Assembly (NCBI GenBank): GCA_025200525.1 | Contig: CM045763.1 | Span: 152,898,246-152,962,245 of the forward strand | DNA length: 64,000 nt | Origin: Camellia lanceoleosa | Taxonomy: Eukaryota > Streptophyta > Magnoliopsida > Ericales > Theaceae | Direction: 5' to 3' | Part shown: in pieces, positions 20,565 to 56,835 of the stretch | Position numbering within the stretch: position 1 is the first letter of the stretch | Layout: each line of letters starts with the position of its first letter | Program-made: the position numbers and the translations under genes | Notes under the pieces: generated by a model | Told to the model about the DNA's origin: nothing | Database searches by the model: none | Seen by the model: the letters and a program-made list of their open reading frames with translations, nothing else

Positions 20565-23500
20565 TGTAACAACGCCCGCGGGGGACCTCGCTACAGTTCG
20601 GACTCGATTTTGTTGCGGTTCTCAATCTTGAACCAAAGAGTCCAAATCCGGCAAATCGTTTTGAAGGAAAACAGATTTTTTGAAAGAAGTGCCAAACATG
20701 GATCGCTTTGCGAGATAATGAGTCGCCACCTAAATATTTTAAAATGGGAAATTTAGGAAACCCCGACTCGTGCCAAAAGGCCACGTGTCCGCTATCACCA
20801 AAGTTGGCTCGAACTTGGGTACGATTAGGGAAGGTCACATCGTGAGCATTCTCTCGCCGTCAAAGACCGGCCTCTACTAACCATGATATCTGATTTTGAA
20901 AACTTTGTATGCTCTTATTCCGGTTATTAGCCTAGGTTACTATGTGATGCTCGCAGCAAACAAGTATAGACTGGGCCGTCTGAATTGGAACAAAACATTT
21001 CATGTTTGTTTGTGAAAGGTGGTTTGCTACCCGCAGGTAGGCTTAAAATACAGATTTTGCCACAATCTAGTGGGCTTTAACAAACAATCGATGAATTGCT
21101 CCAATTCAAATAACCCAACCTCCACCCACAGGCATTCAAGGCAGTTTATATCACATAAGCACGTAGCCTCATGGTAAGCATGCTATCATGGCAACACTCA
21201 CACGCATGCAAGGATGCTAAAGCATAACCACTTACAGAGTACTCCAAGCCAAAACAGAAAGCTTATTAGAAATCATGCATGATCCTAAAATATACAGAAT
21301 GCCTAATGCAACACATGCAAAAATGCAACTATAGCAGGCTCGGCTATTCTAGAGATGGCATATGAAATGCAACGGCTAACATGTATTCAACTTAGAATTG
21401 AAATACAAATGCAGTTTGTATGATGCGCCGAGCCCGGTGCATGCAAAACAGATGAATGAATGCAAACATGCTATCATGCTGTATGCTAATTGAAATATGC
21501 CCTATATCTAACCATTCAAAGCAGGTAAATAAAAGGGAGAAAGAAATGGGGGTTGGAAGACATACATCACACTCACACACCCTTATTACAACATTGTCGC
21601 CACAGAGGGTCCGAATAAATAATAATACAGACCCGAATAAAAGAATATACAGTCCGAAATGATACAGATTCTAATTGATTAACAAATTAATTACAAAAAG
21701 AATTGAGACTGGCGTGCAAGCCGTGGACCCGCCTCGCTCGTGGATAGTATATCCGGGTCGCTTGCAGAAATCCACCGATGCCCCGATTAGCCTCGCTTGC
21801 GCTTTCTCTAATTGCGTGCCAGATTTTGGAAAGCTTATAATTCTTCATTTTTGCTGCAACGGAGAGCAGGAAAAGGGCATAGCAGTGTATTTCACAAATG
21901 TATGCATGTCTCGATCCTCGCGCCACCAATCACGCATATCGATGCATGATGGCCGAGGAGCCGATTTGCACAACTCAATGTTGGGATGAATACACATGAA
22001 TGCTATGAAAATGAGATGCCTCGAAATGCGTGCCCACGGGCGCGCAAATCGAGGCGATGATGAAAGAATGAAAATCGGTAAAGTGCCTCGGCGCGTGCGG
22101 CCGCTAAATCGAGGCGGCGATGAAAGAATGAAAATCGGATAAAAGCGAAGTGCTCGATGCGTGCTCACGGGTGCGCAAATCGAGGCGATGAAAGAATGAA
22201 AGTCGGATAAACCGGTGCCTCGGCGCGTGCCCACAAAGCGCAAACCGAGGCGATGACGAAGATGAAAATCGGATAAAACCGGTGCCTTGAAGTGCGTGCC
22301 CACAGCGCGCAAACCGAGGCGGCGATGAAAGATGAAAACGGATAACCGGCAAGTGCCTCGCGTGCCCACAGCGCCGCAAACCGAGGCGATGATGAAAGAT
22401 GAAAGTCGGATAAACCGGCGTGCCTGGGCGCGTGCCACAGCGCGCAAACCGAGGCGATGCCGAAGATGAAAACGGATAAACCGGCAGTTTCGGCGCGTGC
22501 CCACAGCGCAAACCGAGGCGATGATGAAAGATGAAAGTCGGATAAAACGAAGTGCCTCGGCGCGTGCCCACAGCGCGCAAACCGAGGCGGCGATGAAAGA
22601 TGAAAACGGATAAAAGCGCAAGTCGCCGCGCCGGTAGCGCAAACCGAGGCGGCGCCGAAGATGAAAAACGGATAAACCGGAAGTGCCTCGGCGCGTGCCC
22701 ACAGCAAAACCGAGACGAGACGATGAAAGATGAAAACGGATAAACCGGTGCCTCGGCGTGCCCACAGCGCAAAACCGAGGCGATGCCGAAGATGAAAACG
22801 GATAACCGGCAGTGCCTCGGCGCGTGCCCACAGCGCGCAAACCGAGGCGATGATGAAAGATGAAAGTCGGATAAAACCGAAGTGCCTCGAAGTGCGTGCC
22901 CACAGGCGCGCAAACCGAGGCGATGATGAAATGCAATGAAATGGCATACGGAATGCCGGGATGGACTTACACCAACATGGGAGAGCCTCACCACTCACAT
23001 AGAGGCCGTCGGTAATAAAGTCGCCAAACGCTACCATGACACGCAAATCGAGGCAATGGCATACAAGCATGAAAACGCGAATTGGGCTTACGCCAACATG
23101 AGAGGGCCTCAACCACACCCACATAGGCTGCCGGAATGATAAAAATGAGGTGCCTCGAAGTGTGTGCCCATTGGCACGCAAACCGAGGCAATGCAAAAAT
23201 GATACGAATAGCCCGGGAAATGCTATGCAAGCATGGTAATGGAATTTCAGCACCTAAATAAGGGGGAAAACAGCCCCGAAACAAATCGAAACGACACCCG
23301 AAGCATGCATTCATCCCGAAAGTGCGAAATTAAGCCCCGAAATGGCCTATAGCCATGCTATACATGCAAAATATGATCATGGCAGCAAGAACAGTAGCAA
23401 GGCAGTCCCAAATATGGCATTTTTTCAGTAATAGACATGGCCAAAATGCAAGCATAGGTATGGCAACAAAAGCTCGCAAGAATACGGTAAAAGAGAGGGT

Positions 23501-25698
23501 TTTCAAAGCAAGTAATATATAGAAAATTCAAATAGAAAAATTTTCTTCTACAACATGAAAGAGAGCCCAAAAATAAGCATATATGCAGAAGATGGTAGCC
23601 TCTAAATCATAAGACAAATATGCTAGAAATAGAAGGCAAAAATGAAGCCATAAGAGGGTATAACCTAAGACATGCAATCTATACACCAAATGACCAAACC
23701 TTCTTCATGAAAAATGTAAAGGGGGTCAAAATAAGACTAAAACCAGTAGGGGTCGAGGTCCCAAAAACAAACAAAAATAGGTCAAAAATTGCATACAAAA
23801 TATGGCCTACTTGATGAAATTGAAGGAAGTGATAGATACAAAGGCCAAATGAAGTTGAGCCTATCTACAATGTTGTAGAGGGGCTCATTTTAAGCACAAA
23901 ATCAGTAGGGGTCGGACCCCCAAAAACCAACACAAATAGGTCAATTTTAGCATGCAAAAATGTTACCAACTTGAGGAATATTGAAGGAACTAGTGTATAC
24001 AAACACCAAATGAGGTTGGGCCCTTCTACAAAGTTGTAGAGGGGCTCATTTTAAGCACAAAATCAGTAGGGGTCGGGGCCCCAATTCTCAACCAATTAAA
24101 GTATAGAAAAGGATCAAGAAAATGCCCTAAAAGTTGGTTTTGAGGACTTACCCTTGAAGACTTGTCTTTCTTTGATTCTTGGCTCTGATTTGTAGCTTCT
24201 CAACCTCTAAAATTCACCTTCTTGCTGCTGAAGTGATGGTAGGGATGGTGAAGCTAGGTGTTGATGAAGGAATGGCCTTGACACTTGAAGCTTCTTTGGA
24301 GTTTAAAGCTATGAAAATGAGGGAATTTGGTTAAGTGTTCTTGAGACCAAAATTTCTAACCTTGAAGAAGGAGGGGGAGAGGCCTTCAAATAGGCAAGAA
24401 GATGGGGTGTAAAAGGGGAGGGAAAGCATCCAATCTTTCCCTCCAAATGTCCCCTGATGAGGGAGACACTTTGAAAAATGGACAGGGACAGTCGAAAGGT
24501 GAGTCCGGGCCGCTGTATTTTGCTCAAGGTGGCTGGCCACCACCCACCATGGCCGGCCACCACCTCCTATGGCCGGCCACCACCTCAAAAATCAACTTCA
24601 AAATTTCTGCCGACCACCATACAACAAAGTGTCCTCCTGTGTGTAGAATAAGGCCCTGTGGTCGAATTTGGCAACACCGAACCAGAGTCACAACATAGAG
24701 CTTGAATGAGAGGCCCAAAAATGAAACTCACGGTTCTCGGCCGACCACCATACCAAAGTGTCCTCCTAGATGTGTGCAACAAGGTTCCAAGGCCGAAATT
24801 GGCAACACCAAGCAGAGTCACAACATAGAGCTTGAAGGAGAGGCCCAAAAATGAAACTCACAGCTTCGGCCGACCAAGAGTTGGTAGGGTCCTCCTGTGT
24901 CCCTCATCACAGATATGTAACTTTGGTTGGAAGAAAGTACCCCAAGGTGTTCAACATTGGCCCTAAGTGAGCAAAACGGGCTCCGAGGAGCGAAACCGGT
25001 TATTCGATAATTGCTGGCCTCCCACCCCCAAAGGATCTTCCCGATGTTGAAACAGAGGTACCGCCAAGTTTGAACAAAAACTAATGAGAAATGAACGTCA
25101 GGCCAAAACCGAGCAAATCGATCCCGAAAATGGGTCGCGGTGCGGAAGTGGTGTTTGGCAATGGTGGGTATCCGCGACCCCAGTGTCCTCTCGAATGACA
25201 AAACAGAGGTATCGCCAAAAACCGAGAAGATGGATGCAAATGAATGTCGACCAAAACCGCATTGGGGTCCCGAAATGGGTCGCCGGCGCAAGTGGTGTTC
25301 GGTCGCTGGCACTGGGGCTCCAGTGTTCCACGGAACACTAAAACAGAGGTCTCCGCCAAAACCGGAGAAGTCGGAGATGGTCGGGCGGTCCCGAGCCGAG
25401 GCACACAGCCTAACGGCCCCGAAAACCGGGAACCGGGCCCCGAAACGGGCAAAATGGCCTACGGCCACGAAAAGTAGCTCACGGCCACCGGGAGATAGTC
25501 TACAAGACCACCTTCCTGAAAGAAAACAGAGAAAACCAAGCCCGGTTCGCAAACCGAGACAAGGTAGAGAAAGGGTTCGAGTCCGGGAGGCGGCGGCCGC
25601 GACTCTGAAACTCTTGAGCAAGCACATGATGCAACATCACCGAGCACTCAACCGGTGACGTCTGAGTCTTAAGGTCGGTCAAAAATGGGGTGTCTACA
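20565..25698. mobile_element. large solo-LTR-like element (copy 2) with ATTGC target duplication
   Basis: Flanked by the perfect duplication ATTGC at 20560-20564 and 25699-25703. The empty site is seen in the 3' LTR of C near 33415. It starts TGTAACAACGCCC and ends GGGTGTCTACA, 5134 bp. Homologous to 3419-7289: both carry CTACAGTTCGGACTC near the left end, GAGTCGCCACCTAAATATTTT soon after, GATGCGCCGAGCCCGGTGCA in the middle, and TCAAAAATGGGG before the right end. It differs by a GC-rich minisatellite (22013-22935) and a GC-rich right third (24.9-25.65 kb). The long ORFs here are not protein-like. Confidence 0.85.
22013..22935. repeat. GC-rich minisatellite with a hairpin in each unit
   Basis: About 13 imperfect units of roughly 60-78 bp. 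Each contains GTGCCTCGG, a CGCGTGCCCACAGCGCGC-like spacer, AAACCGAGGCG and a GATGAAAGATGAAAACGGAT tail. GCCTCGG and CCGAGGC are inverted repeats, so each unit can fold. Single decayed units recur at 23040-23060 and 23150-23190. Long - strand ORFs of about 300-360 codons over the array come from its low stop content. Confidence 0.85.
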
Positions 25699-26154
25699 AT
25701 TGCGCATAAATTAATTGGTGTAATTAATTTGGGAAAGTTATGGGTTTGTGAAATTGAGTTGAATATAACGAAATTGGCTCATTACGAGATGGGATAATGG
25801 AGTTGGATTTATAAATCACTCACTTTTGAAAATGCGGATAATTTATCTGTTAGTGCTTTTATTATCTATTCAGAAATAATTGTTTTGGGCTACCCGTGGA
25901 GGGTAGTCTTGATTGTTGTAGACAATGCATGATGATTAGGCAAACTAAACCTGATCAATTGATGTGTCATAGAATATGACGGTTGAAATAATACATTAAC
26001 TTTATGTATTGATTGGATATGCATATGATCTGTGTTTATAAACATTGTATTGTGCGAGAAGAGATAGGGGATGTACTTCACGGTTTAGGGGAAGATAGGG
26101 GATGGACCTCTAAACCGGGTAATGTTTGGGAGGAGATAGGGGATGGACTCCGTA

Positions 26155-26285
26155 GATACAGCTCATATGCTTATCTATTGAAGTGTTGATACAGCTCATA
26201 TGCTTATCTATTGAAGTGTTGATACAGCTTATATGCTTATCTGTTGAAGTGTTGATACAGCTAGTATGCTTATCTATTGTGAAGT
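26155..26285. repeat. 33-bp tandem repeat in LTR of element C
   Basis: Four units of GATACAGCTCATATGCTTAT plus a TCTATTGAAGTGTT tail. The same array is at 33868-33995 in the 3' LTR. Confidence 0.85.
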
Positions 26286-26855
26286 AGAAAATGTTTAATA
26301 TGAGTTACTTTCTCATTTAAATCGTTTGGCCAGGTTCTGAGCCATAGTTATAAATTAAGAATTGGAAAGAAAATGGAAAATGAAATGGAACATGGACACA
26401 TTTGTCATGTAATGGAGATGGTTTGTGAATTGATTTATGTGAGTCAAAGTACATTTATCAATTGCTAATGTCTTAGCTACTGCTCATTTTATGTTTAGCA
26501 TATCTCTACTGGGCGTTGGCTCACCCTATATGGGACATTATTTTCAGGTACAGGTAGCATGTCACCTCCAAGGACATAGCTTGGAAGGCTAGAGGCAGAC
26601 AGACTGTGTTGTCATTTTGCTTTCTTTTGATGTATTACATGTAAATTCAGGCCAAGGGCTTAATATGTATTTGATTCTTTTTGTAACCAAGTGTTGACTT
26701 GGAAAGCTGTAAGCCCGTAGGGCATTTGTTTTTGTTGTTAACATGTAATACTTTTGTAAGAACTACTCTGATGAATAGAAAGGTGTTTATTTCTCGTATA
26801 TCATTGCATGTCTAAAATGATGAGTATTATGTATTATTTTGGGGGCGTTACAACT

Positions 26856-32343: not shown

Positions 32344-34228
32344 TATAGCGATCCCGGTTTTCCCTTTTCTGTATTTGTTGTATTCTGGACTTTGGTTCTG
32401 TGGAGTTGGTGGTTGTATATCTTGTTGTCATCCTTTAATTCCGTGTGTTTGAGTTTTAGGATGTTTTGGGTAGGTGTGTTACAGGTTGGTTGAGCCTAAG
32501 TCTCAAATCTAGTTGCCCAGGTTTTTGGTGTTACGCTCGAGCGGGTCACTCTGCGCTCGAGCGGAGTTTGGTTTTTGGTTTTCCGCTTGAGCGGGCCTTC
32601 TTGCGCTCGAGCGGGGTTTACACACTCCCAGTATCTCGTGTCCTTGCAAAACTTCTGCAGGTGTGTTTTCTACGCTCGAGCGGATTTCCTTACGCTCGAG
32701 CGGTAGCGCTGGAGCGGGCCTTTTAGAGCTCGAGCAGGTAGTTCTTTTTCTGAAAAGTTCTGGGAGATGAAAATCTACGCTTGAGCAGACTGGTCTTTCG
32801 CGCTCGAGCGGGTGTGTTTTGTCTTTGTGTCTTGGCACTTGAGCGGGCATTCTTGCGCTCGAGTAGACCCAGTTTTTTTGTTCTTGACGCTTAAGCGTCC
32901 TGTTCTCTGCTCGAGCGGGTTAGTCGTATATCAGTTGACCGCTAGGCCATTTTAAATCACTTTTTACTTTCCATTCTCTCTCTTACTTTTCGAAAACAGC
33001 CATTGGAGAGCTTCTCTCTCTAAAAACTTACCTTCTCTCTAGGTATTGATCTAGTAGAAGTGATCCTTCACCCTTTGGCCTTTATAAAAAGTGTGTTGAT
33101 CGTCGAGGGCTTCGTTTTGATCGAAAAAGTTTGAAGTTTGAAGCACTTTGAGTTTGGTCTTCTTCTTCTTTTGAGCTCCGAATTTGAGGTAGGGATTCAT
33201 ACTCACTCTTATGGGCTTTGACCTAGATTTTAGGCTTTTGTATAAATGGTTTTGGGTTTTGAAAGTTAGGGTTTCAAATATGTAATTTTGAAAAGAGGGT
33301 TATGTTTATTTTGAACCATAAACCTGTATTTGGGTTTCAAAATGAGTATATTGGTGTTGTTGGTAATATTTAGACCCTTGGGGTTAATATTGAGAGATGT
33401 GGGAGAAAGCCCTAAATTGCACATAAATTAATTGGTGTAATTAATTTGGGACAGTTATGGGTTTGTGAAATTGAGTTGAATATAACGAAATTGGCTCATT
33501 ATGAGATGGGATAGTGGAGTTGGATTTATAAATCACTCACTTTTGAAAATGCGGATAATTTATCTATTAGTGCTTTTATTATCTGTTTAGAAATAACTAT
33601 TTTGGGCTATCGGTGGAGGGTAGTCTTGATTGTTGTAGACAATGCATGATGATTAGGCAAACTAAACCTGATCAATTGATGTGTCATAGAATATGATGGT
33701 TGAAATAATACATTAACTTTATGTATTGATTGGATGTGTATATGATCTGTGTTTATATACATTGTATTGTGCGGGAGGAGATAGGGATGTACTCCACAGT
33801 TTAGGGGAAGATAGGGGATGGACCTCTAAACCGGGTAATGTTTGGGAGGAGATAGGGGATGGACTCCGTAGATACAGCTCATATGCTTATCTATTGAAGT
33901 GTTGATACAGCTCATATGCTTATCTGTTGAAGTGTGGATACAGCTTATATGCTTATTTGTTGAAGTTTTGATACAGCTAGTATGCTTATCTATTGTGAAG
34001 TAGGAAATGTTTAATATGAGTTACTGTCTCATTTAAATAGTTTGGCTGGGTTCTGAGCCATAGTTATAAATTGAGAATTGGAAAGAAAATGGAAAATGAA
34101 ATGGAACATGGACACATTTGTCATGTAATGGACATGGTTTGTGAATTGATTTATGTGAGTCAAACATTTATCAATTGCTAATGTCTTAGTTACTGCTCAT
34201 TTTATGTTTAGCATATCTCTACTGGGCG
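32344..34228 (+). mobile_element. 3' LTR of element C, truncated by the assembly gap
   Basis: Starts TATAGCGATCCCGG and tracks the 5' LTR of C closely through the palindromes (32532-32925), leader, 33-bp repeats (33868-33995) and the CTCTACTGGGCG word, where the gap begins. The last few hundred bases and any target duplication are lost in the gap. Confidence 0.88.
32532..32925. repeat. GCTCGAGC palindrome cluster
   Basis: About a dozen decamers, parallel to 19677-19990. More copies keep the intact CGCTCGAGCGG form here than in the 5' LTR. Confidence 0.85.
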
Positions 34229-34328
34229 NNNNNNNNNNNNNNNNNNNNNNNNNNNNNNNNNNNNNNNNNNNNNNNNNNNNNNNNNNNNNNNNNNNNNNNN
34301 NNNNNNNNNNNNNNNNNNNNNNNNNNNN
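34229..34328. other. assembly gap, 100 N
   Basis: Exactly 100 N, a conventional unknown-size gap. It joins a chromovirus LTR to an unrelated Ty1/copia fragment, so order and distance across it are not guaranteed. Confidence 1.
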
Positions 34329-47735: not shown

Positions 47736-47927
47736 CGTTGATACTACCACCACCACCCCTACCATTGTCCAGCCTCAGATATTTGTCGGTGGAGAAAGAT
47801 ACGAGAGATATGCTTTTGCAGTTGGAGAGTTATTACACTGAGGTGATTTTCTGGTACCTTGTTTCGTCCTTCCTTTTCTTTCTGCCATTTTTGTCGATTT
47901 ATTTGGTATACAATGTTGTACTCCTAG

Positions 47928-49010
47928 AAGAGTATCCCACAATGCCCATGCCCAAAGAACAACTCTTAGAACTCCTCAGTCTCTCCTCCAACTAGCTTGT
48001 CACCATACTACATACTTAGTAAAGGAGCTCCATGAAGATAAAACCCTTACCTTTATGCCATGGTTCAATGCACGAAGAAGATCCAAACTTCTGACTCGAG
48101 CTTTTTCGATCTCAATGGAACCAATGGAAGGTTCTACCAGCCGAATATAGCAAAACTCCACTCGCCAACAGCAAGTCGACAGTACATACAGAAAGAGGGT
48201 GAGTTCGCCGAATGGGGAGAATTTTCATCTAAGGAGAGAAGTCCTTGAAAAACAAATATGAACTGGAGGAATACTTGGCGAAAGCGAAGCGGAGGAACAA
48301 TTCTTTGCTCTCTGAAAGAAAGATGTCCCGCAAATTCGTCACAAAATTTCTGAATTAAAACATTTTCGAGGATCACTACAAAAGAGAGAGGCCCCCATAT
48401 ACTAGCCCTTTTAATTCATTTCCTTTTAAATGAAGAAGTAAAAAATGGGCGTAAAATAATATTTGTTTGTAAGTCGAGATTTTGTTAAGTCTGAGTTATG
48501 TCAAAATTGTTGCCTCTCCGCTTTGGAGGAAGGCGACTTCCTTAGATTAGGGATACACAAAAACAAAATCAATAATTTATATACTGACGAAGAACTGTCC
48601 TCCTCCTCTGATAACATGAACCAGAGCAGAGGCCCATCCGCCCAATCTCCCTCTACCTTGAAGGACCCTCAAGAACAGGCAAAGCCGCCTGGGCCAGAAG
48701 CCTCGGACGACACAATTACTTCTCCGGCAGAATAAGCTTCAAGGACTACGACTAAGACGCCGTCTACAACGTCATAGACGACATCAAATACTCGATAGTC
48801 CTTACCGAATTAATGAAGAATTTAGTAGGATGCCAGAGAGATTTCCATGTATTTGTTAAGTTCCAACCAGATCTCACTATTAGAGGAGGAATTCCTTGTA
48901 TTTTATTAACAAATGGGGACAGTAGTTGGTTAGATGCAATGTCCCCAAAAATGAGAGAATGGTTTGATGTTAATGTAACCACTGTCATCATTAATGAAAA
49001 ATTTTATTAA
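47928..49010 (+). pseudogene. geminivirus replication initiator protein (Rep), copy 1
   Basis: Rep nicks and joins the viral origin and carries an SF3-type helicase. Visible here: a motif-I-like spot (TATCCCACAATGCCC, about 47932); a zone resembling motif II near 48060; the FFDLNGTNGRFY region; the catalytic-Tyr motif III YIQK at 48183-48194; then in another frame Walker A GPSRTGK at 48663-48683, Walker B with VIDD about 48768-48779, and motif C GGIPCILLTN about 48874, ending at TAA 49008-49010. Breaks: frame changes between motifs II and III, a stop after EFSSKERSP (48246), a one-base loss near 48440, and TAA at 48753-48755 before Walker B. A candidate intron lies at 48469-48629. The N-terminus is poorly preserved; the start is uncertain. 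Confidence 0.88.
48469..48629 (+). other. candidate intron in Rep copy 1
   Basis: Donor GTAAGT at 48469-48474, acceptor GCAG ending at 48629, a branch-like CTGAT about 20 nt before the acceptor, 161 nt long, phase 0. The frame open before the donor and the Walker A frame after the acceptor are brought into register. The unspliced frame stays open past Walker A until 48735, as a RepA-type product would. The donor is conserved in Rep copies 2 and 3. Confidence 0.55.
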
Positions 49011-49036
49011 TTTTATTTATAAAACCACTCAAAGTT

Positions 49037-49909
49037 TTATTTACTTAGTACATTTCCCTTATCATCAACTGTTACATCTTGAGTCACATCACTATTTTTT
49101 ACACTGATGATTACATTTCGTAAAACATTAGAAAATTTTGTTGGATCCATAACAACTGATCCTCTACGATCAACTTCCTCTTTGCTAACACCAACCTCTG
49201 AAATCGACGGACCAGGATCAACATCACTGGTGTCATCACCACCTCTGCGTACATCCATCTCTGACAAACTCAGACGACCTCTGCGTTCATGAATAACTGA
49301 AACCACTTTCCCCAAAACCTCCTAACAACAAATCTCTTCGCCTCTCCGGTAAACCAACAAACTTAGTCCGTGTCAGAATGGGAATGGCCTTCGTTGGAGG
49401 ACAATGCAAACATCAACATTATCATTAGTATATTTTTAGATAACACAACAATAGAGGGGCCCTCATTTGAATCTTCGGCATGTCACTTTCGTACAATACT
49501 TGAGATAATTCTTCATTTTACAATCGTAACCCCCCTTTTAATATTGGAATTTTCAAGTCGATACTTCACCATCCATGGCTTTTGTTTGTCGATTAATTGA
49601 ACAATAACCATTCCATAATAGACTAACTCGCATTGACAATCCTAATGGAAAAATAAACCACGCTTACAAACTGTCATTATCGTCTAACCTCCGATCATAA
49701 ACATTTACTCGACCAACCCACTAGCATTGGAGTGCAAAGGAGAATATTTTATCAATATTTTATCAACCTTAATACTTTTTGTTTGTATCTTAACCTCAAT
49801 TGAGAAAATAAATTAGGCAACGCAAGTTCAATACAACTAAAATCACTTCTTTGAAACACCTTCAACAACCCCAGCTTTTTATATCGCCCACCTCCATTAA
49901 CACGAACAT
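49037..49909 (-). pseudogene. geminivirus movement protein (BC1/MP-like), copy 1
   Basis: MP of this family moves viral DNA between cells at the plasma membrane and plasmodesmata. Start ATG at 49907-49909 (aligned to the clean start of copy 3) and end TAA at 49037-49039 give about 290 codons, a usual size for the family. The C-terminal 92 codons (49315 to 49037) are open; upstream the reading is scattered over frames, with RVNVYDRRL-like sequence near 49690. It converges on Rep copy 1 with only 26 bp between the stops and is preceded by the CP tail. Confidence 0.82.
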
Positions 49910-49967
49910 TAGAAATAAAAATACATCAAATTACAATTCTAAACAATTTTAAAGTACATTTGACTCC

Positions 49968-50273
49968 TTAAAGTAATTTTGCATTCCTTTCCATTAACGA
50001 GTAGCCACTAAATATATGGCACCCTTTTGAATCTCGCCAACATTTAGAAGTAATTGTGTTGTCAGGGCTTAGGCTGACGGTTTTGCTGTTCTTGAGGTCC
50101 TTGAGGTAGAGGGAGATTAGGCGGATGGGCCTGCTCTTTGCCAGTTCTGTTATCGAGGAGGAGGAGGGCCTTCTTCGTCGATATAAATAACTCCAAATAT
50201 CTGAGGCTGGGCATTGTGGGTAGGTGAGGAAAACATTCTTGGCATGAAAACGGAAAGAGGCTTGGCGAGGCAT
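49968..50273 (-). pseudogene. chimeric ORF: Rep N-terminus joined to internal Rep and coat-protein tail
   Basis: A single open frame of 101 codons. Residues 1-23 are a well-preserved Rep start with rolling-circle motif I (FLTYPQC). The next part derives from Rep sequence around the intron/Walker A region, but out of its native frame (YLYRRRRPSSSS onward). From about 50046 it continues into the coat-protein C-terminus (CWRDSKGCHIF, then MERNAKLL) and stops at 49968-49970. A deletion junction follows codon ~23 and an inversion junction lies near 50046/50047. It sits directly downstream of the viral origin and its TATA box. It lacks motifs II and III and the helicase. Confidence 0.8.
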
Positions 50274-50311
50274 TATTTAGCTTATTTAGTGATTAACACT
50301 TAACTTACACT

Positions 50312-50358
50312 GGTGTGAATGTTGTTAGTCGAGGCTTTATATAGGGGGAGGTCACACC
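50312..50358 (-). promoter_or_regulatory. Rep promoter TATA box with flanking iteron-like repeats
   Basis: On the - strand CTATATAAAG (50335-50344) lies 62 bp upstream of the Rep ATG. GGTGTGA at 50312-50318 and its inverted copy GTCACACC at 50351-50358 flank it, and another GGTGTGAC is at 50508-50515. This resembles the iteron arrangement by which geminivirus Rep recognises its own origin. Confidence 0.7.
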
Positions 50359-50364
50359 AGCTGG

Positions 50365-50399
50365 GGGGGGCGCTATATATAATATTACTAGCGCCCCCC
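50365..50399. promoter_or_regulatory. viral replication origin stem-loop with TAATATTAC
   Basis: Two 11-nt arms (GGGGGGCGCTA at 50365-50375 and TAGCGCCCCCC at 50389-50399) pair perfectly around a 13-nt loop whose last nine bases, 50380-50388, are TAATATTAC, the geminivirus nonanucleotide where Rep nicks. Confidence 0.93.
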
Positions 50400-50482
50400 T
50401 GTTGAAATTGTACCCGATAGGTAATTTCACCCGTCGATGGACGTACGGATGGTGACGTGTAAGGCGGAGATTAAATCTGTAA

Positions 50483-50514
50483 TCACACTAAATAGTAATC
50501 ACTATTTGGTGTGA
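50483..50514. repeat. second inverted repeat in the viral intergenic region
   Basis: TCACACTAAATAGT and ACTATTTGGTGTGA pair at 13 of 14 positions around a 4-nt loop. Each arm includes an iteron-like GTGTGA word. Confidence 0.8.
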
Positions 50515-50661
50515 CTTGGTAGTAGGCGTGGCCAAATCCTGTCCACCCGTGTCACGATCATGGTGGTTTTGCTTGGATAAAAAGCAAAGGTGCCGCAAAA
50601 TTCCGTGAATGAGCGATAATGGGCGGAATTCAAATTTCATATTTTGAATCTCCGTATTTGT

Positions 50662-50715
50662 AGGAGGTTTTGGGGAAAGTGGTTCAGTTATTCATGAACG
50701 CAGAGGTCGTCTGAG
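50662..50715 (+). pseudogene. short movement-protein fragment in block II
   Basis: About 54 bp nearly identical to the reverse complement of 49268-49325 in MP copy 1 (GGTTTTGGGGAAAGTGGTT and TTCATGAACGCAGAGG words). It joins directly to inverted Rep sequence, with GAG shared at the junction (50713-50715). Confidence 0.8.
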
Positions 50716-51360
50716 ATTGGACGGGTGGGCCTCTACTCTGGTTCCTGTTATCAGAGGAGGAGGACAGTTCTTCGTCAGTATATAAATTATTGATTTTGTT
50801 TTTGTGTATCCCTAATCTAAGGAAATCGTCTTCCCTCCAAACGGAGAGGCAACAATTTTGACATAACTCGTACTTAACGAAATCTCGACTTACAAACAAA
50901 ATATTATTTTCTGCCCATTTTTTTACTTCTTCATTTAAAAAAGGAAATGAATTAAAAGGGCTAGTATATGGGGGCCTCTCCCTTTTGTAGTGATCCCTGG
51001 AAAATGTTTTTAATTGGGGGAATTTTGTGACGTAATCGATGGGATATCTTTCTTTACAGAGAGCAAAGAATTGTTCCTCCGTTTACGCCAAGTATTCCTC
51101 CGAGTTCGTCTCTATTTTTCAAGGACTTCTCCCTTAGATGAAAATTCTCTCCATTGACGAACTTCGCCCTCTTCTCGTATGTCTTGTCGACTTTGTTGTT
51201 GGCGAGTGGAGTTTTTCTATATTCGGATGGTAGATCCTCCCATTGGTTCCAATGAGATCGAAAAATCTCAAGTTGGAAGTTTGGATCTTCTTCGCATTGA
51301 ACCATGGCATGGTGAGGGTTTCCATCTTCATGGAGCCCTTGCAACAAGTATGTAGTATGG
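50713..51360 (-). pseudogene. Rep, copy 2, central part
   Basis: Reads on the - strand from a motif-II-like region (NPHHAMVQC, about 51310) through a FFDLIGTNGRIYHPNIEK block and the motif III area (mutated and frame-shifted), then EEVKKWAENN, the conserved GTAAGT donor, and on to 50713, stopping before Walker A. Both ends are junctions: with the MP scrap at 50713-50715 and with MP copy 2 at 51360/51361. On the 51361 side an ORF (51463 to 51134) runs across the MP-Rep junction, giving a fortuitous fusion. Confidence 0.82.
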
Positions 51361-52113
51361 CCGATCCTCTACGATCAACTTCCTCTTTGCTAACACCAAC
51401 CTCACGAAATCGACGGACCAGATCAACATCCTTTGGTGTCATCACCACCTCACGTACATCCATCTACGACAAACTCGGGCGACCTCTGCGTTCATGAATA
51501 ATTGAACCACTTTCCCAAAACCTCCTAACAACAAATCTCTTGGCCCCTCCAGTAAACCAACAGACTTAGTCCGTGTCAGAATCGGAATGGCCTTCGTTGG
51601 AGGACAATGCCAAACATCAACATTATCATTAGTATATTTTTTAGATAACACAACAATAGAGGGGGCCCTCATTTGCGAATCTTCTGGCATGTCACTCGTA
51701 CAATACTTCAGATACCCCTTCATTTTACAATACGTAACCCCCTTTTAATATTGAAATTTTCAAGTCGATACTTCACCATCCATGGCACCTGTTTATCGTT
51801 AATTGAACAATAACCATTCCCATAATAGACTAACTCGCATTGACAATCCACTGGGAAAATAAACCACGCCGCAAACTTGTCATTCTGTCCTAACCTCCGA
51901 TCATAAACATTTACTCGACCAACCCACTAGCATTGGGTGCAAATGGTAGAATATTTTATCAATATTTTATCAACCTTAATACTTTTTTGTTTGTATCTTA
52001 ACTTTGAATTGAGGAAATAAATTAGGCAATGCAAGTTCAATACAACTAAAATCACTTGTTGAAACACCTTCAACAACCCCGCTTTTATATAGTCCACTCA
52101 TTAACTTGAACAT
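51361..52113 (-). pseudogene. movement protein, copy 2, lacking its C-terminus
   Basis: Start ATG at 52111-52113 by alignment. N-terminal frames are scrambled. The longest readable part (51723 to 51442) has VDVWHCPPTKAIPIL and GLLEGPRDLLLGGFGKVVQLF, corresponding to the middle and late portion of geminivirus MP. It ends at KEEVDRRGSA, where the junction with Rep copy 2 removes the last ~35 codons seen in copy 1. It lies 58 bp downstream of the CP stop. Confidence 0.82.
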
Positions 52114-52171
52114 TAGAAATAAAAATATATCAAATTACAATTCTAAATGCTTTTAAAGTACATTTGACTCC

Positions 52172-52872
52172 TTAAAGTAATTTTGCATTCCTTTCCACTA
52201 GCGATATGACCATTAAATATATGGCACCCTTTTGAATCTCGCCAACATTTCCCATGACATATATCTTTGTAGTCCGTCCAAACATCAATGGAAGAACTGG
52301 GTCCACAACTTATCCCGTGATTTAACGCATTTCTTTGTCCTTGCCACCAACGAGCTTGAACCTCATTTCTTTAGCATCCAAACCGTCGAGTCGGGATCAA
52401 CAATCAAGTCTCGGGATTACCTCGCCAACTCAATAAATATCTTGTCGGTGTAGGGCGGAATCGGCGGACTATTATCCTTGATGACAAAAACAACACGTGG
52501 TGGACCCACGGCCGCCTTAGCATCTTGTCCCAATTGAACATTACCAATGAATTTGATACCCTTAACCACGATCTTGTCTGATTGACGGTCAAATCTCTTA
52601 TTACCCAACTCAATACCATTAAGTAATCTCGCCACGCCTTTATTATCAAACTTAACGTCCCTTAATTGTTCATCGTATAGCTGTAATTTCCTTACTCCCC
52701 TTTTAGTCTTCTTAATAAATCGGGAAATATTCTGAATGTATCGTCTACGAACATACTGGGTCTTAAAAGGTGCACGACTACGGTAACTACGCCTATATCC
52801 ACTGGCTGCCGGTGTCCTTGACCTCCGGTACGCAAGGGGGGTCCAGTAATGGCTGCTTCCTATTCCTTCCAT
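52172..52872 (-). pseudogene. geminivirus coat protein, only long copy
   Basis: The CP packages single-stranded DNA and carries nuclear-import signals. ATG at 52870-52872, stop position 52172-52174, about 233 codons, close to the family's usual length. The first 151 codons are open: a basic, Arg/Tyr-rich N-terminus (RRSRTPAASGYRRSYRSR), KKTKRGVRK, then the conserved core pattern NGIELGNKRF and KGIKFIGNVQ followed by RVVFVIKDNSPP. A TAA at 52417 and later frameshifts break the C-terminal third, which ends ERNAKLL as in the tail fragments. A begomovirus nuclear-shuttle protein is the alternative, as CP and NSP are related; its position upstream of MP in one unit favours CP. Confidence 0.78.
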
Positions 52873-52898
52873 TTTTAATAAATAACTCCAAATCTTTT

Positions 52899-52946
52899 AT
52901 ATAGTGGCTGCTACTGTTAGTGGAAAGGAATGCAAAATTACTTTAA
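52899..52946 (+). pseudogene. coat-protein tail fragment in block IV
   Basis: The last ~14 codons of CP (GTGGAAAGGAATGCAAAATT, then TAA at 52944-52946) in + orientation, immediately beside the inverted start of the long CP copy. The TATATAGTGG at the join is ambiguous: on the - strand it reads CTATATAAAAG and could be a leader/TATA element of the long CP. Confidence 0.75.
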
Positions 52947-53004
52947 GGAGTCAAATGTACTTTAAAACTATTTAGAATTGTAATTTGATGTATTTTTATT
53001 TCTA

Positions 53005-53690
53005 ATGTTCAGGTTAATGGAGGTGGACGATATAAAAACTGGGGTTGTTGAAGGTGTTTCAGCAAGTGATTTCAGTTGTATTGAACTTGCTTTGCCTAAT
53101 TTATTTTCTCAATTGAGGTTAAGATACAAACAAAAAAGTTTTAAGGTTGATAAAATATTGATAAAATATTCCCCCATTTGCGCACCCAATGCTAGTGGGT
53201 TGGTCAGAGTAAATGTTTATGATCGGAGGTTAGACGGTAATAGCGGTTTGCGTGGTTTATTTTCGATGAGATTGTCAAGAGTTAGTCTATTATAGGAATG
53301 GTTATTGTTCAATTAACGATAATGCCATGGGTGAAGTATCGACTTGAAAATTCAATATTAAAGAGGGGTTACGTATTGTAAAATGAAGGGGTATCTGAAG
53401 TATTATGCGAGTGACATGCCGAAGATTTCTATTCGATTTTGACACCGGACTAAATCTGTTGGTTTCTTCAGGCGAAGAGATTTGTTAGTATTCATGAACG
53501 CAGAGGTTTCTAGGTTTGTCGACGATTTCAGAGGGTTGGTGTTAGTAAAGATGAAGTTGATAAGAGGATCAATTTTTATGGATCCAAGAGAATTTTCTAA
53601 TGTTTCTGAAATGTAATCATCGGTGTAAAAAATAGTGATGTGACTCAAGATGTAACGAGTTGATGATAAGGAAATGTACTAAGTAAATAA
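53005..53690 (+). pseudogene. movement protein, copy 3
   Basis: Clean ATG at 53005. The first 96 codons are open and show the best N-terminus of the three copies: ELALPNLFSQLRLRYKQKSF, KVDKILIKYSP and NASGLVRVNVYDRRL, which follow the BC1/MP pattern. After the stop near 53295, pieces continue in other frames (GYLKYYASDMP near 53393, then the GRLSLSE-like zone) to a TAA at 53688-53690. At 686 bp it is about 190 bp shorter than copy 1 because of internal deletions, including the WHCPPTKA segment. Confidence 0.83.
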
Positions 53691-53716
53691 AACTTTAAGT
53701 GGTTTCATAAATAAAA

Positions 53717-54505
53717 TTAATAAAATTTTTATTAATCATGGCGGTGGTTACATTAACATCAAACCATTCTCTCATTTTTGGGGACATTGAATCTAACCAA
53801 CTCATCCCCCATTAGTTAATAAAATACAAGGAATTCCTCCTCTAATAGTGAGATATGGTTGGAACTTAACGAATACATGGAAATCTCTCCGGCATTCTAC
53901 TAAATTCTTTATTAATTAGGTAGGTACTACTCCAGTATTTGATGTCGTCTATAGCGTTGTAGGCGGCATCTTGGTGCAAGTCTTTGAAGCTTATTCTTTG
54001 GAAAAGTAATTGTGTCGTCGAGACTTAAAGGTTTTACTGTTCTTGAGGGTCCTTCGAGGTAGAGGGAGATTAGGCGGATGGGCCTTTCTGCCTCACGTTG
54101 CTCGAGTTATCGAGGAGGAGGACAGTTCTTCGTCAGTATATAAATTGATTATATTATTTTTGTGTATCCCTAATCTAAGGAAATCGTCTTCCCTCCAAAC
54201 GGAGAGGCAACAATTTTGACATAACTCGTACTTAACGAAATCTCGACTTACAAACAAAATATTATTTTCTGCCCATTTTTTTACTTCTTCATTTAAAAAA
54301 GGAAATGAATTAACAGGGCTAGTATATGGGGGCCTCTCTCTTTTGTAGTGATCCCTGGAAAATGTTTTTAATTGGGGGAATTTTGTGACGTAATCGGTGG
54401 GACATCTTTCTTCTGAGCAAAGCGAAATTGTTCCTCCGTTGCTTTCGCCAAATATTTCCCTCGAGTTAAATCTTTGTTTTTTGAAGGGCTTCTCTCCTTA
54501 GATGA
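53717..54505 (-). pseudogene. Rep, copy 3, C-terminal two-thirds
   Basis: Read on the - strand from a point equivalent to just after motif III (about 54505) through KKWAENNILFVSRDFVKYEL, the DEELSSSS stretch, a damaged Walker A (GPSRTVK, the Gly before Lys replaced by Val, about 54030-54055), the Walker B zone (about 53950) and GGIPCILL (about 53845), to the end near 53717. Multiple frameshifts. The left neighbour is the MP copy 3 stop, 26 bp away, the same convergent spacing as in block I. Confidence 0.82.
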
Positions 54506-54710
54506 GTTTATAGCCGTTGTACTTCCATCATTACCAATTTGAATATCTTCCACTCCATCATTACAAATTTGAATATCTTTCACTTGAACCTTTTGAACCT
54601 TTTGGCCTTTTGAACCTTATAATAGTTTATAGCCGTTGTACTTCCATCATTACTAATTTGAATATCTTCCACTTGAACCTTTTGAACATTTTGGCTATTA
54701 TTTGTGCTAA
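54506..54710. repeat. two-copy ~121-bp tandem duplication beside the viral mosaic
   Basis: GTTTATAGCCGTTGTACTTCC recurs at about 54505 and 54626, each followed by TTTGAATATCTTCCAC and CTTGAACCTTTTGAAC words. It directly abuts the right end of the viral sequence. Confidence 0.8.
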
Positions 54711-54989: not shown

Positions 54990-55420
54990 ATTCCTAGATG
55001 ATTAGGTCCAAGAAGACAAGAGCTCGACCCTAAGTGAGCAGATCTCGGATTCCAAATCTCGGATCCCAAATCCTAGAAGACAAGATCTCGGTCTAGATGA
55101 GTAGGTCCGAAAAGACAAGAGCTCAGCCTAAGTGAGCAGATTCCGAATTCCAGATCCCAGAAGCCAAGATCTCGGCCTAGATGAGTAGGTCCGAGAAGAC
55201 AAACTTTAACCTAATTGAGCGGATCTCAATTCCAGATCACGGATCCCGGGTCCTAGAAGACAAGATCTCGGCCTAGATGATTAGAGTGCGAGAAGACAAG
55301 AACTGACCTAAGTGAGCGGATCTCGATTCGGATCTCGCATCCCGGATCCTAGAAGACAAGATCTTTGCCTAGATGAGTAAGTCCAAGAAGACAAGAGTTG
55401 ACCTAAATGAGCAAATCCAG
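54990..55420. repeat. tandem repeat, period about 85-100 bp, about 4.5 copies
   Basis: Units contain AGAAGACAAGAGCTCGACC, CTAAGTGAGCAGATCTCGG, GATCCCAGAAGACAAGATCT and CGGCCTAGATGAGTAGGTCC with drift. Not coding. Confidence 0.8.
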
Positions 55421-55715: not shown

Positions 55716-56835
55716 CGATGTTCCCATGGTGAACATGACGAGTAACTTAGACTTATCATATGGTAAAGTTGAATTATACTTGCATATGATAGAGTTGAAC
55801 TAAGTTGGCGATATTTCTGAATGAAACATAATGAGTAACTTAGACTTATTCTATGGCAGAGTTGAATTATACTTTCATATGATAGAGTTGAACTAAGTTG
55901 GCGATGTTTTTAAATAAAACGTGACAAATAACTTAGACTTATTATATGGCAGAGTTGAATTATACTTGCATATAATAGAGTTGAACTAAGTTGGCAATAT
56001 TTCTGAATGAAACATGACGAATAACTTAGACTTATTATATGGCAGAGTTGAATTATACTTTCATATGATAGAGTTGAACTAAGTTGGCGATGTTTTTAAA
56101 TAAAACGTGACAAATAACTTAGACTTATTATATGACAGAGTTGAATTATACTTGCATATAATAGAGTTGAACTAAGTTGGCAATATTTCTGAATGAAACA
56201 TGACGAATAACTTAGACTTATTATATGGCAGAGTTGAATTATACTTGCATATAATAGAGTTGAACTAAGTTGGTGATATGTCTGAATGAAACATGTCGAA
56301 TAATTTAGACTTATTATATGGTAGAGTTGAATTATACTTGCATATAATAGAGTTGAACTAAGTTGACGATGTTTCTGAATGAAACATAACGAATAACTTA
56401 GACTTATTATACGGCAGAGTTGAATTATACTTGCATATAATAAAGTTGAACTAAGTTGGCGATATTTCTGAATGAAACATGACGAATAACTTAAACTTAT
56501 TATATGGCAACGTTGAATTATACTTGCATATAATAGAGTTGAACTAAATTGGTGATGTTTCTGAATGAAACATGACGAATAACTTAGACTTATTATATGA
56601 CAGTGTTAAATTATACTTGCATATAATAGAGTTGAACTAAGTTGGCGATGTTTCTGAATGAAATATGATGAATAACTTAAACTTATTATGTGGTAGAGTC
56701 GAATTATACTTGTATATAATAGAGTTAAACTAAGTTGGCGATACGTCTGAATGAAACATGACGAATAACTTAGACTCATTATATGGCAGAGTTGAATTAT
56801 ACTTGCAATTCAACTCTGCCATATAATGGAGTCGA
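55716..56835. repeat. 93-bp satellite-like tandem array, about 12 units
   Basis: AACTTAGACTTAT recurs at 55744, 55837, 55930, 56023, 56116, 56209 and 56302, exactly 93 bp apart, and onward to about 56770. Units also carry AGAGTTGAATTATACTTGCA and GTTGAACTAAGTTGGCGAT. At the right end (about 56810-56830) a unit piece is present in inverted orientation (CAACTCTGCCATATAAT). Confidence 0.93.

What the first reader, a model, noticed from the sequence alone, without database searches (positions are those of the whole stretch)
47928..54505. Endogenous geminivirus mosaic carrying Rep, coat protein, movement protein and an origin
Three geminivirus gene families plus a replication origin are integrated in plant chromosomal DNA. 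Sequence shows Rep motif I (FLTYPQC), YIQK, Walker A GPSRTGK and GGIPCILLTN; an MP with NASGLVRVNVYDRRL; a basic-headed CP; and TAATATTAC in a hairpin. Known endogenous geminivirus sequences are mainly Rep/origin fragments; CP and MP together with the origin are less usual.
Basis: partly seen in the sequence, partly recalled or inferred. Interest (0 to 1): 0.93.

Follow-up and report, generated by a model that had tools for sequence, protein, structure and literature searches.

The report
Decayed geminivirus insertion in plant DNA
Broken, shuffled copies of an ancient plant virus sit in this plant's chromosome; they closely resemble virus fossils already described in tea plants, so this is a good example of a known thing, not a new one.

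Summary
Between about 47.93 and 54.5 kb lies a degraded, rearranged endogenous geminivirus (EGV) locus: three Rep copies plus one internally deleted Rep piece, three movement-protein (MP) copies plus a scrap, one near-full coat-protein (CP) copy plus two CP tails, and one TAATATTAC hairpin origin. Each copy is broken by stops, frameshifts, truncation or rearrangement. Contiguous blocks imply a monopartite parent with CP then MP on one strand and Rep convergent. Named protein relatives are from Camellia sinensis (CP 74-87%, MP 78%, Rep 76% over a short stretch), Sarracenia purpurea (MP 91%) and Rhododendron molle (fragment), so the host is probably in the order Ericales; it was not identified. 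Sharma et al. 2020 (PMC7758297) described this kind in tea: an assembled 4.6 kb 'integron' with CP, MP, repA, repB and TAATATTAC, and 1,601 of 2,165 Rep loci with other geminiviral domains. Differences between copies are even over codon positions (few sites) and most indels break the frame, fitting neutral decay after integration. Most likely a silent fossil. New member of a known kind; interest low to moderate.

The parts
47753..47927 (+). left junction stretch; 47753-47785 resembles the Rep N-terminus/filler of Rep piece D (80.6% of 36 columns) and includes a 17-nt exact match (47769-47785); the rest is of unknown origin
47928..49010 (+). Rep copy A, broken (frameshifts, stops); begins near Rep residue 19, runs to the Rep end
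49037..49895 (-). MP copy A (Gemini_BL1-like by its match to the other copies and relatives), broken; convergent with Rep A
49942..50045 (-). CP C-terminal tail belonging to copy A
50046..50188 (-). Rep helicase-region piece D (about 79% identical to copies A and C)
50189..50207 (.). filler at an internal deletion in Rep piece D; mostly within a 17-nt match (50194-50210) to the left junction stretch
50208..50273 (-). Rep N-terminus with FLTYPQC
50274..50660 (+). large intergenic region: origin hairpin 50365-50399 with TAATATTAC 50380-50388; GGTGTGA-type repeats at 50310, 50352 (inverted) and 50507
50661..50719 (+). MP C-terminal scrap; 7 nt (50713-50719) shared with the next block
50713..51360 (-). 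Rep copy B, broken; 87.9% identical to copy A
51363..52097 (-). MP copy B, broken; 90.8% identical to copy A over 51363-52250
52146..52872 (-). CP, near full length, broken (in-frame stops and frame changes); first 119 residues 94% identical to an unnamed relative (P0002)
52898..52972 (+). CP C-terminal tail belonging to copy C
53005..53690 (+). MP copy C, broken, with small internal deletions
53713..54505 (-). Rep copy C, truncated and with indels against copy A; ends at the right junction
48462..48481 (+). GTAAGT splice-donor-like 20-mer in Rep A, identical in Rep B (50881-50900 -) and Rep C (54239-54258 -)
   Evidence: splicing itself is inferred

Best explanation
This is an old, non-functional endogenous geminivirus locus in a plant chromosome, probably of the order Ericales, and of the kind reported as Camellia 'Clade 3' EGV. 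Multimeric or several related viral DNA molecules were joined into the chromosome by end joining, giving blocks in both orientations, some with deletions (inferred from the breakpoints, a 7-nt overlap at one junction and a filler copied from, or shared with, the left junction stretch). The copies then decayed without selection on protein (supported by flat codon-position divergence and frame-breaking indels). Today it is most likely silent methylated DNA, at most feeding the small-RNA pathway (inference from PMC7758297, not tested here).
For: Pfam Gemini_AL1, Gemini_BL1 and Gemini_coat hits. Relatives encoded on contigs of 174-256 Mb of Camellia sinensis, 248 Mb of Sarracenia purpurea and 45 Mb of Rhododendron molle; the named Rep relative is C. 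sinensis on a 2.2-Mb contig. The tblastn hits (E <= 1e-3) of the 25 relatives held all fall inside 47.92-54.5 kb of the 64-kb window. Block map from self-comparison. Mismatches by codon position, pooled pairs: MP 13/176, 10/178, 12/178 (P = 0.81); Rep 6/105, 9/104, 6/106 (P = 0.63); these are the 532 of 2,314 (MP) and 315 of 1,843 (Rep) aligned columns where both copies had the same assigned frame. Indels not a multiple of three: 28 of 28 (MP A-B), 24 of 27 (MP A-C), 15 of 18 (MP B-C), 18 of 19 (Rep A-B), 23 of 26 (Rep A-C), 6 of 10 (Rep B-C). Origin hairpin. Gapless flanks. Published precedent.
Against: Host species not identified; the genome search did not complete. No read data, so a local chimera cannot be excluded outright. 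Codon-phase tests rest on only 35 and 21 mismatches from non-independent pairs, and on a minority of the columns. Genus placement was not tested: 4 viral-contig scans gave no relative, so no exogenous reference was compared. The CP piece is just under the Pfam cut-off and finds no PDB sequence.
Confidence: 0.92

Rival explanations
1. The segment is an assembly chimera: reads of an episomal geminivirus infecting the sequenced plant were wrongly built into a chromosome scaffold.
For: A 100-N scaffold gap lies in the same window (34229-34328), and no reads could be inspected.
Against: The gap is 13.6 kb away from the viral block. Copies differ from each other (K2P 0.06-0.10 in the main alignments, 0.02-0.18 over short pieces) and carry many frame-breaking indels and stops, which a replicating virus would not be expected to carry. 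Relatives are encoded on chromosome-size contigs of other plants.
Confidence: 0.04
2. Both DNA-A and DNA-B of a bipartite begomovirus-like virus integrated here, because the MP is of the BL1 (DNA-B) family.
For: MP matches Gemini_BL1. Sharma et al. note potential nuclear shuttle proteins in C. sinensis loci. A bipartite olive virus has a virion-sense BL1-type MP on DNA-B (PMC8000510 section 3.2). The Pfam family matched by the CP piece covers both CP and BR1.
Against: MP runs straight into the Rep end in blocks 1 and 5 (48225-49209 matches 54505-53520 across that boundary), and CP sequence lies directly before MP in blocks 1, 4 and 5. Block 1 alone holds Rep, MP and the CP tail in a row. These blocks could share one early rearrangement, but a Rhododendron molle protein also shows a CP fragment followed by an MP start (P0022), and the published Camellia unit has CP, MP and Rep together.
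Confidence: 0.06
3. The locus is domesticated: the host keeps part of it for a function such as an expressed Rep or antiviral small RNAs.
For: Yam EGV Rep showed signs of selection (PMC5014472 abstract); Camellia Rep-HSP70 co-transcripts with some sites under purifying selection are reported.
Against: The ORFs here are broken and divergence between copies shows no codon-position bias. Small-RNA function could not be tested.
Confidence: 0.06

Closest known systems
Camellia sinensis Clade 3 EGV 'integron' (Sharma et al. 2020, PMC7758297)
   Same: CP, MP (BC1 in their figure 5 legend), repA and repB homologues, TAATATTAC; integrated in an Ericales genome; clustered copies. CP of this window is 86% identical to C. 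sinensis P0001 over 99% of the piece, Rep 76% to P0023 over 39%.
   Different: This locus is a specific rearranged array with blocks in both orientations; host and clade membership were not confirmed by a tree here. Whether this exact locus was in their set is unknown.
Macadamia EGE (PMC8626973)
   Different: Begomovirus-like AC2, AC3 and AC4 and no MP in the Results; here a BL1-type MP, and no AC2/AC3 match among the 10 pieces scanned.
Yam EGV1/EGV2 (PMC5014472)
   Same: Endogenous; EGV1 tandemly repeated, with a GC-rich stem carrying TAATATTAC.
   Different: No CP homologue detected there; Rep under selection there (abstract and passages read).
Citlodavirus-type viruses (CCDaV, CaCDaV)
   Same: Rep of Clade 3 EGVs is reported as sister to these and MMDaV. 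A spliced Rep and a BL1-like MP on a single molecule are recalled from memory; searches gave no passage on it.
   Different: CP of the Camellia unit reportedly clusters with grabloviruses; not tested here.

Membership tests
Endogenous geminivirus (family Geminiviridae) | Rep with geminivirus catalytic domain (Gemini_AL1) | tested here: met
   48060-48248, 1.4e-10, above cut-off; PDB Rep chain 1l2m_A, 6.1e-5
Endogenous geminivirus (family Geminiviridae) | Geminivirus coat protein | tested here: met
   Gemini_coat 4.1e-8, 0.5 bit under cut-off; relative P0001 at 1.6e-27; against: no PDB sequence match
Endogenous geminivirus (family Geminiviridae) | TAATATTAC in a GC-rich hairpin upstream of Rep | tested here: met
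Endogenous geminivirus (family Geminiviridae) | Linked to host DNA on both sides | tested here: inconclusive
   Gapless flanks in the assembly; no reads
Camellia Clade 3 EGV | Same gene set (CP, MP, Rep, TAATATTAC) | tested here: met
Camellia Clade 3 EGV | Rep branches within Clade 3 | not tested
   No reference Reps were held and no tree was made
Camellia Clade 3 EGV | Host in Ericales | tested here: inconclusive
   8 of the 25 relatives carry a species name, and all 8 are Camellia, Sarracenia or Rhododendron (their order is partly recalled); the window's species is unknown
Bipartite begomovirus | MP and NSP on a second molecule (DNA-B), apart from Rep and CP | tested here: not met
   MP contiguous with Rep (blocks 1 and 5) and with CP (blocks 1, 4 and 5)

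The most novel reading that the evidence does not exclude
A lineage of monopartite geminiviruses with a DNA-B-type movement protein entered several Ericales families (Theaceae, Sarraceniaceae, Ericaceae; families recalled), and relatives may still circulate. The MP here is 91% identical to a Sarracenia copy and the CP 86-87% to the closest Camellia copies, while near-full CP ORFs 59-69% identical sit on unnamed contigs of 3.3-3.9 kb (P0005, P0006, P0007), about the size of a free genome.
Probability: 0.2. Interest if true: 0.45.

Novelty: new member of a known kind. Interest (0 to 1): 0.27.

Why it matters
It documents a multi-gene geminivirus fossil whose MP is closer to a pitcher-plant (Sarracenia) copy than to the one tea copy found, so it could help date geminivirus invasions across Ericales and show how a DNA-B-type MP sat on a single-component genome. 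It does not change the picture already published for tea.

Tried and rejected
TAATATTAC alone as evidence: rejected, since 0.91 copies are expected by chance; the hairpin and its position carry the weight.

Four scans of IMG/VR confirmed no relative, so no exogenous reference could be compared. The PDB gave nothing for the CP piece. Rfam (gathering threshold) and tRNA scans of the window found nothing and gave no clue to the host. Paper searches: Sarracenia with geminivir gave 1 listing, unrelated by title and abstract start; two of endogenous geminivir, Rhododendron, Ericales gave 119 papers, 15 listed, with no further EGV paper by title; 'endogenous geminivir' since 2021 gave 15 papers, 14 listed; two searches listed 14 and 12. 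(passages of PMC8073023) were a search for an account of citlodavirus splicing and MP and gave none. No structure was predicted.

Single-base indel excess: by BLASTN, EGV pairs show 1.6-2.9 substitutions per indel, against 15.5, 21.3 and 6.6 for three other repeats of the window with similar divergence (Fisher P = 0.001, 4e-6 and 0.016 for MP A-B) and no indels in most comparisons of the 93-bp array. Against it: a GC-rich minisatellite at 22 kb gives 0.9-2.4 and some other element pairs 3.7-5.8, and a three-copy realignment gives MP 61 substitutions to 21 indels and Rep 73 to 13. It is noted and not claimed.

The hairpin background script was flawed: the N run was matched to itself and inflated its counts, in the window and in shuffles. 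In the part of its output that was shown, the window has four non-N stems of 11 bp with 9 or more G/C, the origin being one; 0 of 20 shuffles had such a stem. It is not used as evidence.

Full report
What was checked. Of 10 ORF pieces scanned against Pfam, 6 match geminivirus families and 3 pass the curated cut-off: Gemini_AL1 at 48060-48248, Gemini_BL1 at 53005-53295 and 51442-51723. Gemini_coat at 52417-52872 falls 0.5 bit short, but its relative P0001 of Camellia sinensis passes with 1.6e-27. Four of the 10 pieces gave no geminiviral match. The nonanucleotide occurs once, which chance alone would give, but it lies in the loop of a perfect 11-bp stem, fold z = -3.25, 107 bp upstream of a Rep start.

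Anatomy. Self-comparison and tblastn with 25 relatives give these blocks along the + strand. Block 1, 47928-50045: Rep A (+), MP A (-), CP tail (-). Block 2, 50046-50660: a Rep helicase piece and a Rep N-terminus on the - strand with the middle of Rep missing and a short filler between them, then the intergenic region with the origin. A 59-nt MP scrap follows (50661-50719). Block 3, 50713-51360: Rep B (-), sharing 7 nt with that scrap. Block 4, 51363-52872: MP B (-) and CP (-). Block 5, 52898-54505: CP tail (+), MP C (+), Rep C (-). Blocks 1 and 5 both show MP and Rep convergent, and blocks 1, 4 and 5 show CP sequence just before MP, so the parent most likely carried CP, MP and Rep on one molecule; a rearrangement shared by all blocks cannot be excluded from this window alone. 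A GTAAGT donor-like 20-mer is identical in all three Rep copies; a spliced Rep is inferred, and fits the repA/repB of the published Camellia unit.

The filler of Rep piece D lies mostly in a 17-nt stretch that occurs exactly once more in the window, at 47769-47785 in the left junction stretch (none in 100 shuffles). Either the filler was copied from there during end joining, or both come from one earlier rearrangement; this was not resolved.

Decay. Stops lie inside the alignments of Rep A and B, MP A, B and C, and CP to their relatives, and frames change along them; Rep C is truncated and has indels against Rep A. K2P distances of the main alignments are 0.062-0.067 between MP copies and 0.072-0.095 between Rep copies A, B and C; short pieces range from 0.02 to 0.18. 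Differences fall evenly over codon positions (P = 0.81 for MP, 0.63 for Rep), on 35 and 21 mismatches and on the minority of columns with an assigned frame. This fits neutral decay after integration better than divergence as live virus.

Relatives. CP: 14 of 32 candidates at E <= 0.01; the 4 named ones are C. sinensis (74-87%), the best full-length one 86% over 99% of the piece. MP: 8 of 12 candidates; the 3 named are Sarracenia purpurea (91% over 77%), C. sinensis (78% over 85%) and Rhododendron molle (91% over 35%). Rep: 3 of 3 candidates, one named, C. sinensis, 76% over 39%. The R. molle protein also shows a CP fragment followed by an MP start (sequence; my reading). The host is therefore probably in Ericales but was not identified.

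Literature. Sharma et al. 2020 (PMC7758297; abstract and the whole results section read) report Rep homologues at 2,359 loci, up to 967 in one tea variety, other geminiviral domains at 1,601 of 2,165 extended loci, and a 4.6 kb Camellia unit with CP, MP, repA, repB and TAATATTAC. Sarracenia and Rhododendron do not occur in its main text; its supplements were not seen. Macadamia (PMC8626973, abstract and Results read) has a multimeric, broken insertion. Yam (PMC5014472, abstract and passages) lacks a CP homologue. The olive virus paper (PMC8000510) was read in abstract and section 3.2; of PMC8073023 only passages were seen.

Verdict. The claimed rarity of CP, MP and origin together is not supported. 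The locus is a fossil of a known kind.

Noticed in passing
window 34229-34328: 100-N assembly gap directly after an LTR-retrotransposon repeat copy that ends at 34228; the geminiviral block lies 13.6 kb to its right.
   Followed up: yes
window 7290-34228: Ty3-type LTR retrotransposon sequence: 4 of 8 long ORFs scanned match gag, protease, RT or integrase-related families; repeat pair 25698-26515 / 33415-34228 at 95.7% looks like an LTR pair.
   Followed up: partly
window 55732-56807: Array of 11.6 copies of a 93-bp unit with 0% indels, 1.2 kb right of the viral block; other repeats of about 96 bp at 55153-55412.
   Followed up: no
window 22028-22931: GC-rich 66/67-bp minisatellite with many small indels; several long ORFs on the - strand overlap it.
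   Followed up: no
window 48003-54505: Viral copies show few substitutions per indel by BLASTN (1.6-2.9) against 6.6-21 in three other repeats of the window of similar divergence; weaker after realignment and matched by the 22-kb minisatellite.
   Followed up: partly
protein hits P0005, P0006, P0007: Near-full CP relatives (59-69% identical) on unnamed contigs of 3.3-3.9 kb, possibly free viral genomes or short EGV contigs.
   Followed up: no
window 54496-54695: Short host-like tandem repeats start right at the right viral junction (59-nt unit at 54496 and 54615, 93%).
   Followed up: no
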